Shown: positions 3,286-16,548 of the stretch, one piece after another | How positions within the stretch are numbered: the stretch's first letter is position 1 | How the letters are laid out: each line of letters opens with the position of its first letter | DNA from: a virus | Direction: 5' to 3' (one strand) | Virus record (IMG/VR): IMGVR_UViG_3300032265_000877 | Span: 1-64,000 of that record | Length of the DNA stretch: 64,000 bases | Made by a program: the position numbers and the translations under genes | The notes under the pieces: generated by a model | What the model saw: only the letters and a program-made list of their open reading frames with translations | Database searches by the model: none | What the model was told of the DNA's origin: nothing

Positions 3286-4749
3286 CTACTCTTTGGTTAA
3301 GTTTTTAATTACCTCGGTAGTTTGCTCTTCATTAAGGCCGTTAGAGGGTAGTTCTTTAAGGACATTTGCCTTGTCTCCAAAGATAGAACTAAGGACTCCA
3401 GCACTACCTTGGCGCTCTACGGTCATCCTAATAAACTCCCGAGAATCATCCAATTCTTTAGTCGTCTTAATCAATTTGAAGAGCCGATCTATCTCTTTTG
3501 AAACGTTAGGGTCAGCGTATCCACCGTTCATTTCTTCAGCAAAACGCATAAAAGCGACCCTTTGACCTTGCATTTCAATGATGGCATTGATGAGGGACTT
3601 GAGTTGGTCTTTGGTCTTAACCTCAACTGGGAGCTTAAATGCGCACACAGATTGAGGCTTAAAAGCAGGGCAGTTAGCCGCTATAAAGCAGGTATCACAC
3701 ACCCGAAGACTGACTGATTGAGACTGAACAACAGGTACTTCTTTAAATACTTCTACCCCGTTTTCGAACTCAACTACCTGCTTCATCTCGTATCCAAAGA
3801 CAGGTAAATTGCCCATTTCTTCAGCGGTTCTAGGCTCTAACTTCCGCGCAGAAACACCCCTCTTATCACTATTAGCGGGGGCGATTTCTCCACTTTCATC
3901 ACTCACTGGTAAGTCGTTATTATCATATAACTTCTCGGTATCTTCTGGAATCACGCCGTTTAACCTCGCTTCATATTGCAGGTAAGACCACACTGCCAGA
4001 CGGCAGACTTCCTTATCATCATCTTCTAAAATCTTGTCTACATCTAACCCTGCTTTAAGGTAAGCGTTCCTATATCTAGGGCGCGCTTGATCTTTCATAC
4101 GGGCTGGGTAGCGTACCAGTTTTGTACCGTCCCAAACGATGGTTTCACCGTTACGCATAGGGGATAGCCAAGACATAGTGCTGGCGGTCTCAGCAGTAAT
4201 CTGCCGTAAAGTATCGGGCTTAGCCGACCCAAGTATATGAAAACGGGTGCCGTGCTTACGAACAAGTGTTCGCATTACAGTTATAAGCTGCTGGTTATCT
4301 TCTAGGGATTCGCCTGGAATAGCAATGTCTAAGTAGTTACTTCCGAGTAGATTAAGCTCAGCAAATCCAGATTCAGGGCTCCAAGCAGGTAAGAACTTAC
4401 TGGGCGGTACTTGAGACCAAGCTGACTTACGCTGCTGCGCTACAAACTCTTCATCCGCAGCTATTTCACTAAACATATTGATTCGGTCTATATTGTTTGC
4501 AATAAAGTCCTCATACTCAGCGGCAAAGTCCAGCAGAGCATCTGCTGTCAGCTCTTCTGATTTAGGTATGCCGGGGTATACATAGATGTAGAGGTGGTCT
4601 TTGAAGTAATTCTTCAGTAGATACGTCTTATTCTGGGGTAAACCGCGCTTAGTAAGCCCCCAAAAGCTGACTCCGACATGTGTAGCTGACGTGGACTCTA
4701 AAAGGGTACGGTTGCTTGGGACTTCTGCCCCGAGGTAGACAATCTTCAT
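3286..4749 (-). CDS. unknown, possible TGT/DpdA-like barrel fused to a Cys-rich domain
   Basis: The 487-residue protein overlaps the preceding gene by ATGA. The N-terminal ~260 residues alternate strands and helices. FHILGSAKPDTLRQI followed by SWLSPMRNGE resembles the glycine-rich phosphate-binding and Ser/Arg segments of tRNA-guanine transglycosylases and phage DpdA enzymes, which insert 7-deazaguanines. No queuosine-precursor gene is in the window. The C-terminal part holds four cysteines (CDTC, then two more within 18 residues), a possible metal site, then a helical region containing RFAEEMNGGYADP. The transglycosylase reading is weak; the C-terminal part is not recognised. Confidence 0.35.
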   Translation of the reverse strand: MKIVYLGAEVPSNRTLLESTSATHVGVSFWGLTKRGLPQNKTYLLKNYFKDHLYIYVYPGIPKSEELTADALLDFAAEYEDFIANNIDRINMFSEIAADEEFVAQQRKSAWSQVPPSKFLPAWSPESGFAELNLLGSNYLDIAIPGESLEDNQQLITVMRTLVRKHGTRFHILGSAKPDTLRQITAETASTMSWLSPMRNGETIVWDGTKLVRYPARMKDQARPRYRNAYLKAGLDVDKILEDDDKEVCRLAVWSYLQYEARLNGVIPEDTEKLYDNNDLPVSDESGEIAPANSDKRGVSARKLEPRTAEEMGNLPVFGYEMKQVVEFENGVEVFKEVPVVQSQSVSLRVCDTCFIAANCPAFKPQSVCAFKLPVEVKTKDQLKSLINAIIEMQGQRVAFMRFAEEMNGGYADPNVSKEIDRLFKLIKTTKELDDSREFIRMTVERQGSAGVLSSIFGDKANVLKELPSNGLNEEQTTEVIKNLTKE

Positions 4750-5210
4750 TGAACGCGGTGATCCTCTACGTAGGTCTCCTGCTGGCTTATAATCTCGCTC
4801 TTAATCTTTGCCCACGACTTTGCGCCCTGCCTGCCATCTGGACGGAACTTCTCATCCATATAAACTGGGTGAAGGAACATAAGGCTGGTTAAACCAATCT
4901 CGAGTAGTTTTGCGGCCAATGCAGGGTCAGCAGTTATTACTAGCTCGGCCCCGCTTTGTTGTCCACGACAGTACTCTACTTGGCGCAACTCAGGCCACTC
5001 GACACCCGCAGTCATCTCTAAACCAACCAAGTCATCTACTAAATTAACCTTGTTTTCACGCAACCAACGATCATCTTTTTCTTTGTGTGAGCAAAGCAGT
5101 AGAACGCGCCCTCTATCTTTTAAAATGCGATAAAGGGACATACCTTGCGGGATGGGGGCATTGGTTATGGGGTTACGGAGAACGCCATCAATAAACATAA
5201 GTGTTGCCAC
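4746..5210 (-). CDS. degenerate HAD-like protein
   Basis: The 154-residue product begins with FIDGVLRNP, like HAD motif I, but the first, nucleophilic Asp of the usual DxDGV is replaced by Phe. RVLLLCS fits motif II, and LVITADPALAAKLLEIG followed by HPVYMDEKFRPDG fits the later part of a phage HAD-like family. The fold assignment is reasonable, but phosphatase activity is doubtful without the nucleophile. The start is GTG. A TAGGGT element seven bases upstream and an AGGG site compete as start signals. It is coupled to the next gene by ATGA. Confidence 0.5.
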   Translation of the reverse strand: MATLMFIDGVLRNPITNAPIPQGMSLYRILKDRGRVLLLCSHKEKDDRWLRENKVNLVDDLVGLEMTAGVEWPELRQVEYCRGQQSGAELVITADPALAAKLLEIGLTSLMFLHPVYMDEKFRPDGRQGAKSWAKIKSEIISQQETYVEDHRVQ

Positions 5211-11041: not shown

Positions 11042-11548
11042 TTACTTGATCTTAATTGTTTTTGGCTTTAACTCATCTGGAATTTCTCTATCCAGCTTTA
11101 CAGTTAAGATGCCGTCTTTCATCTCCGCGCCTTCTACTGTTACGTACTCAGCTAGTGGAAAGGACTGCTTAAATGCGCGAGCCGCAATCCCCTTGTGGAA
11201 GTACTCATCAATAGATTCATCATCCTTCTTGCCTTCAATGGTTAACACCTGGTCTTTAAAGGTGATATCCAAGTCTTCCTTGCTAAAACCTGCAAGGGCA
11301 ATACGGATTAGGTACTTGTTTTCCCCTGCCGAAAGGATGTCATACGGCGGGTAGGTTGAGCGTGTATCAAATTGATTGGCCAGCTCATTAAAGAAAGCGG
11401 CATGGGTGTTGAAGCCGATTCCTCGATTAATTAAGTGATTGGTTAGCTCTGTAACAATCTGAGCTGGGGTCTTGACTGTGACTGTCTTTGTTGATTCTTT
11501 AGTTGCCCACATCTCATGTGGACTACGTGTTGGGTAGCCTGAAGCCAT
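11042..11548 (-). CDS. small heat shock protein, Hsp20/alpha-crystallin family
   Basis: The 168-residue protein has an alpha-crystallin domain from about residue 55 to 150: PPYDIL, KYLIRIALAGFSKEDLDI, LTIEGKK and GILTVKLDRE. The C-terminal IKIK resembles the I-x-I anchor that links dimers into oligomers. It would act as an ATP-independent chaperone in the cytoplasm. T4-like and cyanomyophages also carry Hsp20 genes. The gene is a single transcription unit with its own extended -10 promoter, a two-hairpin leader and a terminator. Confidence 0.93.
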   Translation of the reverse strand: MASGYPTRSPHEMWATKESTKTVTVKTPAQIVTELTNHLINRGIGFNTHAAFFNELANQFDTRSTYPPYDILSAGENKYLIRIALAGFSKEDLDITFKDQVLTIEGKKDDESIDEYFHKGIAARAFKQSFPLAEYVTVEGAEMKDGILTVKLDREIPDELKPKTIKIK

Positions 11549-12610: not shown

Positions 12611-12822
12611 TATGGTCGGTCAAGCGGGGTAGGTGCTTTTGCGTACGTTCCGCAGATGGCACATTCCATGTCTATAAAATACTGGGATATTTCATAGTCC
12701 TCAAAGGAGGCTTTAATTAACCATATGCTTGATTCGCACTTAGGGCACTCATGGCAGATATGATCTGCGTACTCCATGGTGCCTGTGTAATCAGGCTTTA
12801 GTTCGCGGATCGACTTGCTCAT
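12610..12822 (-). CDS. zinc-ribbon protein (70 aa)
   Basis: CHECPKC and CAIC, about 30 residues apart, form a two-knuckle zinc ribbon. The start overlaps the end of the preceding gene by 32 bases, and no strong ribosome binding site is seen, so translation is probably coupled. Function unknown. Confidence 0.65.
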   Translation of the reverse strand: MSKSIRELKPDYTGTMEYADHICHECPKCESSIWLIKASFEDYEISQYFIDMECAICGTYAKAPTPLDRP

Positions 12823-13033
12823 GCAGCTTGTCCAATGCCGCTCTTTGTTCGGCCATCATCTTTTCTATCTGGTTAACCTCTTCAGGTGAAAGCGTGTCTT
12901 TTTGATCTAAGAAAAGCTTTACGCCAATCTCATAGTTTTGTTCTAACACCTGTAACTGAATAGCGCGGCGCTCTGAAATAAAAGAAGCAGCTTCACGAAG
13001 GCGTTCTTGTCGTTTATTTTGTGTCTTACTCAT
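12791..13033 (-). CDS. hypothetical coiled-coil protein (80 aa)
   Basis: The ATG at 13033 gives a four-base ATGA overlap with the ParB-like gene and is preferred to the longer frame. The product is almost wholly helical and highly charged, with heptad-like spacing (LREAASFISERRAIQLQVLEQ). No known domain. Confidence 0.65.
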   Translation of the reverse strand: MSKTQNKRQERLREAASFISERRAIQLQVLEQNYEIGVKLFLDQKDTLSPEEVNQIEKMMAEQRAALDKLHEQVDPRTKA

Positions 13034-13581
13034 TGTCCGCCCCAACCGCCGCCTCTAAATATAGCAGGCGTAGCCTCTTGTTGACCTGTTTCAAAATGTT
13101 TAGGTCTAGACATTTCTTTGTACTCTGTAGTATTTTGAGCAGTAGTCAGATGTTCATCTAACGCTCCTGCTGCTGTGCCTTCATCGGCTTCACCTGTTCT
13201 TTTCTGTTGCCATGGTTGCATGTCTTTATGAGTCACTATTCGTGCATTAATGCTTTTCATACCCTTTTCCAAAGCATTTTGGACTCTGTGGGTTCCATCA
13301 AGGAGGCTATGTGTACCATCTGGATGTTTAAGTACAACAATAGGGTGGCTCATATCTACCGCATTGGTTCGTGCTCTATTTTCTCCTGTGCTCTCTCCTA
13401 GACGTCCTTCTAGTTGAGGGGCAAATATCTGAGGATTAAAGGTATTTAACTTACTTTTACTAGCAGCCATATTAACAATATCCCCAACTTTAAATGACCA
13501 TTTACCATGTGGATTTTCAAATCCAGCAGTTTTTTCTAGAGGATTAAATTGTTTAGGGTTAAGGTTATTTGAGTCGCTCAT
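13030..13581 (-). CDS. ParB-like nuclease-fold protein with GGGWGG tail
   Basis: The 183-residue product contains HPIVVLKHPDGTHSLLDGTHR, the ParB/sulfiredoxin-like signature with the conserved DG-x-HR loop, around residues 78-100. Proteins with this domain bind or cut nucleic acid, or hydrolyse nucleotides. The C-terminus ends in ATPAIFRGGGWGGQ, nearly the same tail as in the unrelated FmdB-like protein 66 bases upstream. It is the first gene of a short coupled set. Confidence 0.65.
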   Translation of the reverse strand: MSDSNNLNPKQFNPLEKTAGFENPHGKWSFKVGDIVNMAASKSKLNTFNPQIFAPQLEGRLGESTGENRARTNAVDMSHPIVVLKHPDGTHSLLDGTHRVQNALEKGMKSINARIVTHKDMQPWQQKRTGEADEGTAAGALDEHLTTAQNTTEYKEMSRPKHFETGQQEATPAIFRGGGWGGQ

Positions 13582-13646: not shown

Positions 13647-13832
13647 TTAATAATCTTCATTATAGTCCTTGCCGCCCCAACCTCCACCTTTAAAATGAGC
13701 AGGAGTTGCCTGCCACATACGGGTCATTGTTTTATTACAAGGAATACAGGTGGGAGTTCCCTCTTCATCAAAGGAACGCTGCACCTCTATGACTGAAGAA
13801 CAGGTGTCGCACTTAAAATCATAAGATGGCAT
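13647..13832 (-). CDS. FmdB-type zinc-ribbon protein (61 aa)
   Basis: MPSYDFKCDTC, then CIPCNK, is the standard FmdB-family zinc ribbon, found in many small putative regulators. The ATG at 13832 is used because the longer frame runs over the preceding gene and lacks gene-like composition. The C-terminal ATPAHFKGGGWGG is shared with the ParB-like protein downstream. It lies two bases after the stop of the proteasome-like gene. Confidence 0.8.
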   Translation of the reverse strand: MPSYDFKCDTCSSVIEVQRSFDEEGTPTCIPCNKTMTRMWQATPAHFKGGGWGGKDYNEDY

Positions 13833-13834
13833 CT

Positions 13835-14383
13835 TTATACCCCGTATTGTTCTACTTCTATAAATGGGCCGGATGTATAGGCGTCTAAAGACTCTGCAAT
13901 CTTTAGGGCATCTAAGATGGTAGCGCCCGCATGTAAGGCCCCTAGAGCGTAAGCTGCGCCGTTTCCTACCCCATAAAAGCCGCTGTCTGTACGGCATACG
14001 GATAGGTCATCTGAGATATCAAAAACTTTGCCGCTGACTGCAATCAAAAAGTTAAACCTAGGACCGCTGTCCGATTTGTCTCTTTCTTCTTCAAAGTTAT
14101 ACCCATTAGATTTGAGGCATTCACGCAAGGAAGACATGACTTTTGTAATAACAAAATGATGGATGTCCTTGCGGTCAGAGGCTGTAACGGCTGGCGGCTT
14201 CCAAATATGCTGAGCCACGTCACACGGCTGTACTTCGCCGCTGCCAGCAATCAAATAAGGGCCTTTTTCAGTAATTTTAGACATATCGGGATGCCTATAA
14301 ATGCGGCCAGTACCATCGGTTACTTGGTTATCTGCTCCAAATACGCAACGGTCTTCGTATTGTACGGCTACTATCGTAGTCAC
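13835..14383 (-). CDS. proteasome beta/HslV-like Ntn-hydrolase
   Basis: The 182-residue protein starts with MTTIVAV, so removal of Met would expose Thr1. Counting from that Thr, Asp17 falls in GADNQVT exactly as in HslV and 20S beta subunits, and a Lys follows at position 35 (MSKI) where Lys33 is expected. Later segments YLIAGSGE and GVGNGAAYALGALHAG fit the fold. No HslU-type ATPase is in the window. It could be a self-standing peptidase, could associate with host ATPases, or could be an altered binding protein. The start is GTG overlapping the RuvC-like stop. Confidence 0.75.
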   Translation of the reverse strand: MTTIVAVQYEDRCVFGADNQVTDGTGRIYRHPDMSKITEKGPYLIAGSGEVQPCDVAQHIWKPPAVTASDRKDIHHFVITKVMSSLRECLKSNGYNFEEERDKSDSGPRFNFLIAVSGKVFDISDDLSVCRTDSGFYGVGNGAAYALGALHAGATILDALKIAESLDAYTSGPFIEVEQYGV

Positions 14384-14919
14384 TACCGCTCCCTAAACTT
14401 TGGATCCTGAAGTTTAACATAGACTTCCTTTTCGTATGTACGCTTGCCTGTTCCAGATACTAGGTGGGCTAAGGCGTAGGAGTCTGCGGCGTTGTCGTCG
14501 TTAAACTCAGCATCCCAGTTTTTATAGGCGTACATGAGCATCTGGCTCTTGGATACCCCAGTGCCTTTGCCACACGTGTATTTTTTTAGGTTAGTGGGCG
14601 GGACTATAAGGGGGTAGATCCCAAATTCTAAGAGGGTTAGTTTTACCATACCACCCAGTTCGCCAAGCATATTGGCCATCTGTGACCCAAAGGCGTAGCC
14701 CTCTATGGCAACGTCCTTGATATCGTCAAACTCATGGAGCCAGTTCATAACGTGGGATTGAATATCCCGCAGGCGCTCTATGCCCCGCTTATCAGACTTG
14801 TATACCTCTGTGTAGTAGTTGTCTTGATCTTTAAATGCCGTAATAGCAAACCCGCTATATGACTGGTCTATGCCTAAATAGACCGGGCCATCTACAGCGC
14901 CCTTGCTAAACACCTTCAT
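14383..14919 (-). CDS. RuvC-like Holliday junction resolvase
   Basis: The 178-residue protein has the RNase H-fold resolvase layout: YLGIDQSYSGFAI with the first catalytic Asp, VAIEGYAFG with the Glu, and DDNAADSYALAHL with the last acidic pair. It would cut branched recombination or replication intermediates before packaging. It is coupled by TAATG to the preceding gene and lies in the recombination block with the Cas4-like nuclease and RecA. Confidence 0.88.
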   Translation of the reverse strand: MKVFSKGAVDGPVYLGIDQSYSGFAITAFKDQDNYYTEVYKSDKRGIERLRDIQSHVMNWLHEFDDIKDVAIEGYAFGSQMANMLGELGGMVKLTLLEFGIYPLIVPPTNLKKYTCGKGTGVSKSQMLMYAYKNWDAEFNDDNAADSYALAHLVSGTGKRTYEKEVYVKLQDPKFRER

Positions 14920-16230: not shown

Positions 16231-16548
16231 TCATAGATCTTTATCTAGTACCCATTCTTCAAGTGTCATACCTGAACGTGTTGCTTTACGTTTAAGCGCG
16301 TTACGCTCACGGTGACTCATGCCTCCCCAGATACCATGGGTATCGTCCATGCTCTCTGCGTAAAGTAAACACTCTTTACGAACAGGGCATTCTGGAAGAC
16401 CGTCTCTGCCGTAGCAAACAGCTTTTGCTATATCAGCTATGTCTTTATATTGGTCTTTATCTCTTGGTGGGTACCAAGTGTTGGTACTCATTCCTCGGCA
16501 TTTTGCTCTATATCGCCAAGGTTCTGGTCCGAAGTCTTCATCGTACAA
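16231..16548 (-). CDS. WhiB-family transcription factor
   Basis: The 105-residue protein has the four WhiB cysteines (about residues 17, 45, 54 and 60), CPVRKEC, and the GIWGG turn. These bind a 4Fe-4S cluster and contact the host principal sigma factor. WhiB proteins are confined to actinobacteria and their phages, so this gene strongly indicates the host. Unlike the usual C-x2-C, eight residues (YGRDGLPE) separate the second and third cysteines. The gene overlaps the resolvase gene by 61 bases. Confidence 0.88.
   Translation of the reverse strand: MYDEDFGPEPWRYRAKCRGMSTNTWYPPRDKDQYKDIADIAKAVCYGRDGLPECPVRKECLLYAESMDDTHGIWGGMSHRERNALKRKATRSGMTLEEWVLDKDL

What the first reader, a model, noticed from the sequence alone, without database searches (positions are those of the whole stretch)
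13835..14383. Phage-encoded proteasome/HslV-like subunit with apparently intact Thr1 and Asp17
The MTTIVAV start would expose Thr1, and GADNQVT puts Asp at position 17 as in HslV. The likely Lys falls at 35 instead of 33. No ATPase partner is nearby. In an actinobacterial host with its own proteasome and Mpa-type ATPase, a phage subunit could redirect degradation or act alone.
Basis: partly seen in the sequence, partly recalled or inferred. Interest (0 to 1): 0.55.

Follow-up and report, generated by a model that had tools for sequence, protein, structure and literature searches.

The report
Phage proteasome-like threonine peptidase
An uncultured virus of bacteria carries an intact-looking, simplified relative of the protein-shredding proteasome, a known type of phage gene, and a small neighbouring protein that may be its working partner.

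Summary
Thr1, Asp17 and the Lys are unchanged in 96 of 96 aligned copies, 62 distinct. The predicted fold (pLDDT 91) is the proteasome/HslV Ntn sandwich; the nearest solved sequence is BPH. It misses the curated HslV and 20S-beta cut-offs. The 87.6 kb record shows no Clp/HslU-type ATPase, Pup or Pup ligase. It belongs to the known group I proteasome-like homologues: a new member of a known kind.

New here is a candidate partner, a small predicted helical hairpin beginning MSKTQ. All 80 kept loci found with its profile carry the peptidase upstream, 37 of them new to the session. In the 6 related genomes read, both genes are missing from the replication cassette and lie together elsewhere; one has a 29%-identical peptidase with the triad intact. 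Some clades lack MSKTQ, so it is not indispensable. Best reading: an ATP-independent, self-compartmentalising peptidase, perhaps steered by MSKTQ. Activity, oligomer and substrates are untested; redirecting a host Pup-proteasome is unsupported.

The parts
13835..14383 (-). Proteasome-like (group I) Ntn threonine peptidase, 182 aa, GTG start; Thr1, Asp17, Lys35
12791..13033 (-). 'MSKTQ' protein, 80 aa from its ATG (an in-frame TTG at 13045 would add 4 residues), predicted helical hairpin; candidate partner; no Pfam, PHROG or NCBIfam match
14383..14919 (-). RuvC-like resolvase immediately upstream; its TAG stop overlaps the peptidase GTG (TAGTG), with AGGGAG as a likely ribosome-binding site
13647..13832 (-). 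FmdB-family zinc ribbon, 61 aa; its ATG follows the peptidase stop after 2 bases
13030..13581 (-). ParB-like protein between FmdB and MSKTQ; no tblastn relative at 1e-6 in the loci held at that call
16231..16548 (-). WhiB regulator (host hint: actinobacterium)
11042..11548 (-). Hsp20 small heat-shock protein in the same run of genes

Best explanation
It is an active N-terminal-threonine peptidase of the group I proteasome-like class (BPH/AAH-like), made by a myophage, probably of an actinobacterium, from a run of DNA-metabolism genes. Removal of the initiator Met exposes Thr1; Thr1, Asp17 and Lys35 form the proteasomal triad, with no propeptide. By analogy with BPH it should assemble into a homo-oligomeric double ring with inward-facing active sites, and admit unfolded or specific proteins without an ATPase, past a modestly acidic pore loop (about residues 92-108). 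The nearby helical MSKTQ protein is the best candidate for a partner: adaptor, gate, inhibitor or substrate. Shown by computation: sequence, conservation, predicted fold, no Clp/HslU-type ATPase match in the record, gene linkage. Inferred: Met removal, activity, ring, ATP-independence, role of MSKTQ, timing (middle genes), targets (host or phage proteins during takeover).
For: Triad invariant in 96/96 copies, down to about 27% identity, and T/D/K in 84/84 copies with that region found through the neighbour. Model pLDDT 91.0, pTM 0.87; VIA Z 18.0 to epoxomicin-bound BPH 5ovt (162 aligned, 2.7 A), 17.6 to HslV 4hnz and 17.6 to 20S 6z46, which are ties. A long loop before strand 110-116, on average 2.4 more acidic than basic residues, range 0-3, milder than BPH's acidic pore loop (PMC5777263, passages). 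No PF07724 in the record. Partner: 80/80 kept loci retrieved by the MSKTQ profile carry the peptidase upstream on the same strand, 37 of them with sequence not already fetched through the peptidase; in the 6 CHAP-clade genomes read RuvC runs into SpoVS with the slot empty and the two genes lie together elsewhere; L119 carries a 29%-identical peptidase beside MSKTQ.
Against: No activity, oligomer or substrate data. The passages read of PMC5777263 imply that even BPH, which epoxomicin labels, was inactive on the model substrates tried. The Ser129 equivalent is Asn in the window clade (N in 22, S in 37 of 62 distinct) and the Asp166 equivalent is Asp in only 34 of 62. MSKTQ is not universal: 15/24 loci in the RuvC context, 34/37 in the CHAP context, 0/4 in the portal context, 1/4 elsewhere; none was found by tblastn in 18 loci of other peptidases, flanks only. 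Of the 86 loci found through MSKTQ, 49 repeat sequence already fetched through the peptidase, all 6 window-type ones among them. The RuvC and CHAP clades are one phage family, so these counts are few independent events, and the 6 genomes were picked because they hold the peptidase or MSKTQ. An FmdB gene also lies near the moved pair in 5 of the 6.
Confidence: 0.55

Rival explanations
1. Stand-alone, highly specific Ntn enzyme (processing protease or peptide ligase, as connectase is) acting on one or a few phage or host proteins; MSKTQ is only a neighbour or is the substrate.
For: No unfoldase match in the record; the gene moves between contexts (RuvC, near RNR, lysin, portal), so no fixed machine is needed; MSKTQ is missing in several clades.
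Against: Linkage to MSKTQ survives relocation and replacement of the peptidase. Connectase's two-helix insertion between S3 and S4 (PMC8665760) has no counterpart in the model, which has no helix before residue 51.
Confidence: 0.25
2. Virion morphogenesis protease: it cleaves scaffold, portal or internal virion proteins.
For: In 5 loci of another phage group (L029, L031, L076, L077, L094) the gene directly follows the portal gene; no prohead protease was recognised among the 6 head-region proteins of G000 given to Pfam or the 3 of them given with the terminase to PHROGs.
Against: In the window lineage the gene lies in the DNA-metabolism cluster, about 50 kb from the head genes in L096. Microbacterium phages WaterT and BarnCat carry a separate annotated capsid maturation protease.
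Confidence: 0.08
3. Subunit that enters or redirects the host's Pup-20S proteasome.
For: A WhiB gene suggests an actinobacterial host, and Actinobacteria are the main bacterial group with a 20S proteasome (PMC8665760).
Against: 12.3 of 191.9 bits to bacterial 20S beta, no propeptide; no Pup or ligase match in the record; nearest solved kin are homo-oligomeric BPH; homologues occur in phages of Vibrio, Pantoea, Geobacillus and Moorella, hosts not known to me to have a 20S proteasome (recalled).
Confidence: 0.04
4. Catalytically dead relic or scaffold protein.
For: Changes at the Ser129 and Asp166 equivalents.
Against: Invariant Thr1/Asp17/Lys and purifying selection.
Confidence: 0.05

Closest known systems
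BPH (betaproteobacterial proteasome homologue, PDB 5ovs/5ovt/5ovu)
   Same: Fold, Thr1/Asp17/Lys, Lys a few places after the proteasome's 33, long loop at the pore-loop place, no unfoldase partner known
   Different: 23-25% identity over the structural alignments; loop less acidic; phage-borne; linked to MSKTQ
AAH / CPH / PPH, group I proteasome-like homologues with phage members (Fuchs, Alva, Lupas 2021, PMC8665760)
   Same: Phage-encoded, compact, triad intact, no AAA+ partner
   Different: PPH is about 140 residues and lacks helix H2, unlike this protein; AAH could not be compared by sequence; that paper found no Actinobacteria-specific phage with AAH and no suggestive gene context
HslV (ClpQ)
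   Same: Fold, TTI..V start, Asp17
   Different: Far below equivalog cut-offs; no HslU-type ATPase match in the record
'protease' of Microbacterium phages WaterT, BarnCat, Pumpernickel and Arthrobacter phage Pitbull; 'ATP-dependent protease subunit' of Actinomycetia phage DSL-LC01
   Same: Same type of protein in actinobacterial phages, already in GenBank
   Different: 27-35% identity to the query used (window or L029); no MSKTQ relative by tblastn in the flanks fetched

Membership tests
Group I proteasome-like homologues | Proteasome-type Ntn sandwich | tested here: met
   AF2 pLDDT 91.0; Foldseek best 2.3e-10 to BPH; VIA Z 18.0
Group I proteasome-like homologues | Thr/Ser1, Asp17, Lys33 equivalent | tested here: met
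   96/96 copies, starts set at Met-Thr-Thr/Cys
Group I proteasome-like homologues | Compact, no propeptide, no C-terminal S12/H5 | tested here: met
   Gene starts at MTT; model ends with strand 174-180 and no helix after it
PPH | About 140 residues, lacks helix H2 | tested here: not met
   182 aa; helices 51-60, 68-72 and 74-92 precede strand 110-116
AAH | Clusters with AAH sequences | not testable with these tools
   No AAH reference sequences on hand; two genome-contig scans gave no relative
BPH | Closest solved sequence; acidic pore loop | tested here: inconclusive
   Profile E 2.1e-8 to 5ovu; loop only modestly acidic; Z tied with HslV and 20S
HslV | NCBIfam equivalog cut-off | tested here: not met
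   21.7 of 137 and 20.8 of 157.75 bits
HslV | HslU partner encoded in the phage record | tested here: not met
   No PF07724 match; 14 of 14 control genomes rang. Host HslU not testable
Bacterial 20S beta | Equivalog cut-off and propeptide | tested here: not met
   12.3 of 191.9 bits; gene starts at MTT
Group I proteasome-like homologues | Double-ring oligomer with peptidase activity | not testable with these tools
   Needs protein

The most novel reading that the evidence does not exclude
Peptidase and MSKTQ protein form a two-component, ATP-independent phage proteolytic machine: a proteasome-like ring whose substrate choice, gate or inhibition is set by a phage-made helical hairpin, kept together through relocation and exchange of the peptidase.
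Probability: 0.3. Interest if true: 0.7.

Novelty: new member of a known kind. Interest (0 to 1): 0.42.

Why it matters
Fuchs et al. 2021 report for the newly found proteasome-like proteins no gene context or co-occurrence that suggests a function and no AAA+ partner. A small protein that stays with the peptidase when both change place gives a concrete, cheap test of how such rings might work. The find also adds phages with an actinobacterial mark (WhiB), a host group in which that paper found no AAH-carrying phage; whether this protein is AAH is open.

Tried and rejected
Pup-related reading: the ParB-like gene 13030-13581 ends in GGQ, as Pup does (recalled). The FmdB protein beside it ends in nearly the same GGGWGG tail, no relative was found in the loci held, and PF05639 and PF03136 do not match the record. 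Dropped as chance.

Capsid protease: considered because of the portal-adjacent loci; rejected for the window (gene place; WaterT and BarnCat have both proteins). A PHROG scan of 10 ct2KA10 proteins named no other protease, but 4 of them matched only families of unknown function, so it stays open there.

FmdB as partner: an FmdB gene lies near the moved pair in 5 of the 6 genomes, on the other strand, but in G002 it stays beside RuvC although the peptidase has left; weaker case than MSKTQ.

Host relatives: two genome-contig scans and one plasmid search with the Pumpernickel protein gave none; they reach close kin only and do not show that bacterial homologues are absent. Host proteasome content stayed untested.

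Fold of MSKTQ against PDB: nothing at E 0.001 or better; says nothing on function. Hsp20 as partner: in 23 loci, window included, mostly 5-8 genes away; not pursued. Nearness of relatives to nucleotide-metabolism genes (5 of 11 annotated regions looked at; not) was not tested against chance.

Papers: PMC8665760 abstract, Results and Discussion read; PMC5777263 passages and section 6; PMC6802176, PMC10202952 and PMC10914622 term look-ups only, no occurrence of 'proteas' or 'HslV'; other papers search listings only. No search for the MSKTQ protein in print was made, so I do not claim that its linkage is unreported beyond PMC8665760's own statement.

Rows and limits: L040 (inverted double copy) and contig-cut loci were kept, with denominators stated; dN/dS pairs outside pS 0.02-0.7 were not printed (11 of 105 shown); the MSKTQ scan kept 80 of 114 relatives; of 7 CHAP-clade records tested for the polymerase 6 were read at the cassette (G014 left out). 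The tree used 61 rows, its bootstrap had not settled, and it splits the CHAP-context peptidases into two groups among portal-context ones with modest support.

Full report
OBSERVATION. The reported stretch holds an ORF on the minus strand: 182 codons, GTG start, MTTIVAVQYEDRCVFGADNQVT. Counting from the Thr that Met removal would expose, Asp is at 17 and the aligned Lys at 35. Its start overlaps the stop of a RuvC-like gene (TAGTG) behind AGGGAG, and its stop is followed after 2 bases by the ATG of an FmdB zinc ribbon, so it looks like an ordinary operon gene. The window is part of an 87,610-base virus record with tail sheath, portal, major head protein and terminase, RecA, family A polymerase, DnaB-type helicase and WhiB: a myophage, probably of an actinobacterium.

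WHAT IT IS. PHROG 1040 'peptidase HslV family' matches at 2.6e-25; Pfam Proteasome gives 14.7 bits, under its cut-off of 22.4. The closest solved chains are BPH, 3.8e-7 alone and 2.1e-8 with a 26-sequence profile. AlphaFold2 with 26 sequences gives pLDDT 91.0 and pTM 0.87. Foldseek ranks BPH first, then HslV and 20S beta; VIA Z is 18.0 for BPH, 17.6 for HslV and 17.6 for 20S, too close to separate. Among predicted viral proteins 44 match at E 0.001 or better, some named HslV or proteasome. Fold and class are thus clear, subfamily is not.

CATALYTIC RESIDUES. In 96 copies (62 distinct; window, 89 IMG/VR loci with one double copy, 5 GenBank phage loci) Thr1, Asp17 and Lys35 are invariant; the glycines at 46 and 48 near the oxyanion hole are kept in 92 and 93. 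Starts were set at Met-Thr-Thr/Cys: the longest-ORF start in 68 copies, 2-15 codons inside it in 27, no Met before the Thr in 1. The Ser129 equivalent is Ser in 37 and Asn in 22 of 62 distinct, and the Asp166 equivalent is Asp in 34; these assignments follow the sequence alignment. dN/dS in the 11 pairs printed is 0.02-0.22, with most dS near saturation. The Lys offset is shared with BPH. The loop before strand 110-116 is long and modestly acidic (mean 2.4 more acidic than basic residues, range 0-3), at the place of BPH's much more acidic pore loop (PMC5777263).

WHAT IT IS NOT. It misses the HslV equivalog cut-offs (21.7 of 137; 20.8 of 157.75 bits) and the bacterial 20S-beta cut-off (12.3 of 191.9). 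The record has no PF07724 match (controls 14 of 14). PF00004 matches twice over its cut-off, in an IstB/DnaC-type ATPase gene and a DnaB-type helicase gene, neither an unfoldase. There is no match to Pup or Pup ligase. Redirecting a host Pup-proteasome is therefore unsupported.

RELATIVES. GenBank phage records: 7 with the window protein, 34 with a divergent member, among them Microbacterium, Arthrobacter, Vibrio, Caulobacter, Geobacillus and Moorella phages. WaterT and BarnCat carry a separate annotated capsid maturation protease. Two scans of 84,980 bacterial and archaeal genomes found no close relative, which does not exclude distant ones. Fuchs et al. (PMC8665760) already describe phage-borne group I homologues (PPH, AAH, CPH) and note the lack of partner ATPases and of telling gene contexts.

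CONTEXTS. The gene's place varies: directly after RuvC in 30 loci counting the window, after a lysin-like protein in 52 (CHAP and peptidoglycan-binding domains in the representative tested), after the portal in 5, and four genes from ribonucleotide reductase in 2 near-identical loci (L011, L012). The first two contexts belong to one phage family: of 12 records tested, 10 share the polymerase at 55-82%, and 10 match the major head protein, nine at 69-96% and one at 29%.

A LINKED SMALL PROTEIN. A gene whose product begins MSKTQ (window 12791-13033) lies 1-4 genes downstream on the same strand in 61 loci. Where at least 2.5 kb of downstream sequence is held it is found in 15 of 24 RuvC-context loci, 34 of 37 CHAP-context loci, 0 of 4 portal-context loci and 1 of 4 others; L089, one of the three CHAP loci counted as lacking it, has a divergent form. 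The two clades' versions are related by profile comparison (96.9%, 1.6e-10), over 63 columns and from shallow alignments. In reverse, all 80 kept loci (of 114) found with the CHAP-clade MSKTQ profile have the peptidase upstream on the same strand, and so have the 6 found with the window's. Of the 80, 43 repeat sequence already fetched through the peptidase and 37 do not; the 6 all repeat it. So the independent part of this test is 37 of 37.

A NATURAL EXPERIMENT. Of 7 CHAP-clade records that carry the polymerase, 6 were read at the replication cassette (G010-G013, G015, G016). In all 6, RecA, resolvase, WhiB, Cas4-like, g14, RuvC and SpoVS are in place, but neither peptidase nor MSKTQ is between RuvC and SpoVS. 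Both lie together 30-66 kb away by contig coordinates. These genomes were picked because they hold the peptidase or MSKTQ, so their presence together is partly by choice; the empty slot is not. In these genomes most of the peptidase's cassette neighbours stay behind; an FmdB gene is near the moved pair in 5 of the 6, on the other strand, while in G002 an FmdB gene stays beside RuvC without the peptidase. In G012 (L119) the peptidase is only 29% identical to the window's yet keeps T, D and K, while its MSKTQ is 91% identical to that of L091. Of 86 loci found through MSKTQ, 84 hold the triad region and all 84 read T, D, K; in the other 2 (L149, L171) the peptidase is cut by the contig end. Against a strict requirement: G009 has the peptidase in the slot and G002 has it near RNR, with no MSKTQ found in either record (the search reached the CHAP-clade form only at 3e-4, so a divergent one could be missed). 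Because the genomes are related, all this reflects few events.

MECHANISM. Most likely an ATP-independent, self-compartmentalising threonine peptidase that acts on unfolded or chosen proteins during takeover, with MSKTQ, predicted as a helical hairpin (helices 7-51 and 54-78, pLDDT 88.8), as adaptor, gate, inhibitor or substrate. Activity, ring and partnership are inferred.

VERDICT. The protein is a new member of a known kind; the linkage to MSKTQ is the part worth a bench test.

Noticed in passing
L119 (IMG/VR contig 3300032334_000488), about 3307-4261: Peptidase only 29% identical to the window's beside an MSKTQ gene 91% identical to that of L091: looks like replacement of the enzyme with the neighbour kept.
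   Followed up: yes
L029, L031, L076, L077, L094: In a second phage group the peptidase gene directly follows the portal gene, with the terminase 2-4 genes upstream; ct2KA10 (L107) also carries WhiB.
   Followed up: partly
L033:5004-5561 (Moorella phage MTATph1, CDS0188): GenBank start at 5046 (MGADS...) lies 14 codons inside an in-frame ORF beginning MTCIAGL; the annotated start would hide the catalytic Thr1.
   Followed up: partly
window 13030-13581 and 13647-13832: A ParB-like protein and an FmdB zinc ribbon, neighbours, end in nearly the same tail (ATPAxFxGGGWGG); the first ends in GGQ.
   Followed up: partly
window 11042-11548: Hsp20 small heat-shock protein in the same run of genes; its family is in 23 loci, window included.
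   Followed up: no
L034, L101, L103, L104, L105: Distant peptidase relatives sit near nucleotide-metabolism genes (RNR, thyA/thyX, DHFR, PhoH, MazG) in 5 of 11 annotated phage regions looked at; not tested against chance.
   Followed up: no
L040: Contig with two inverted copies of the peptidase gene, probably an assembly artefact.
   Followed up: no
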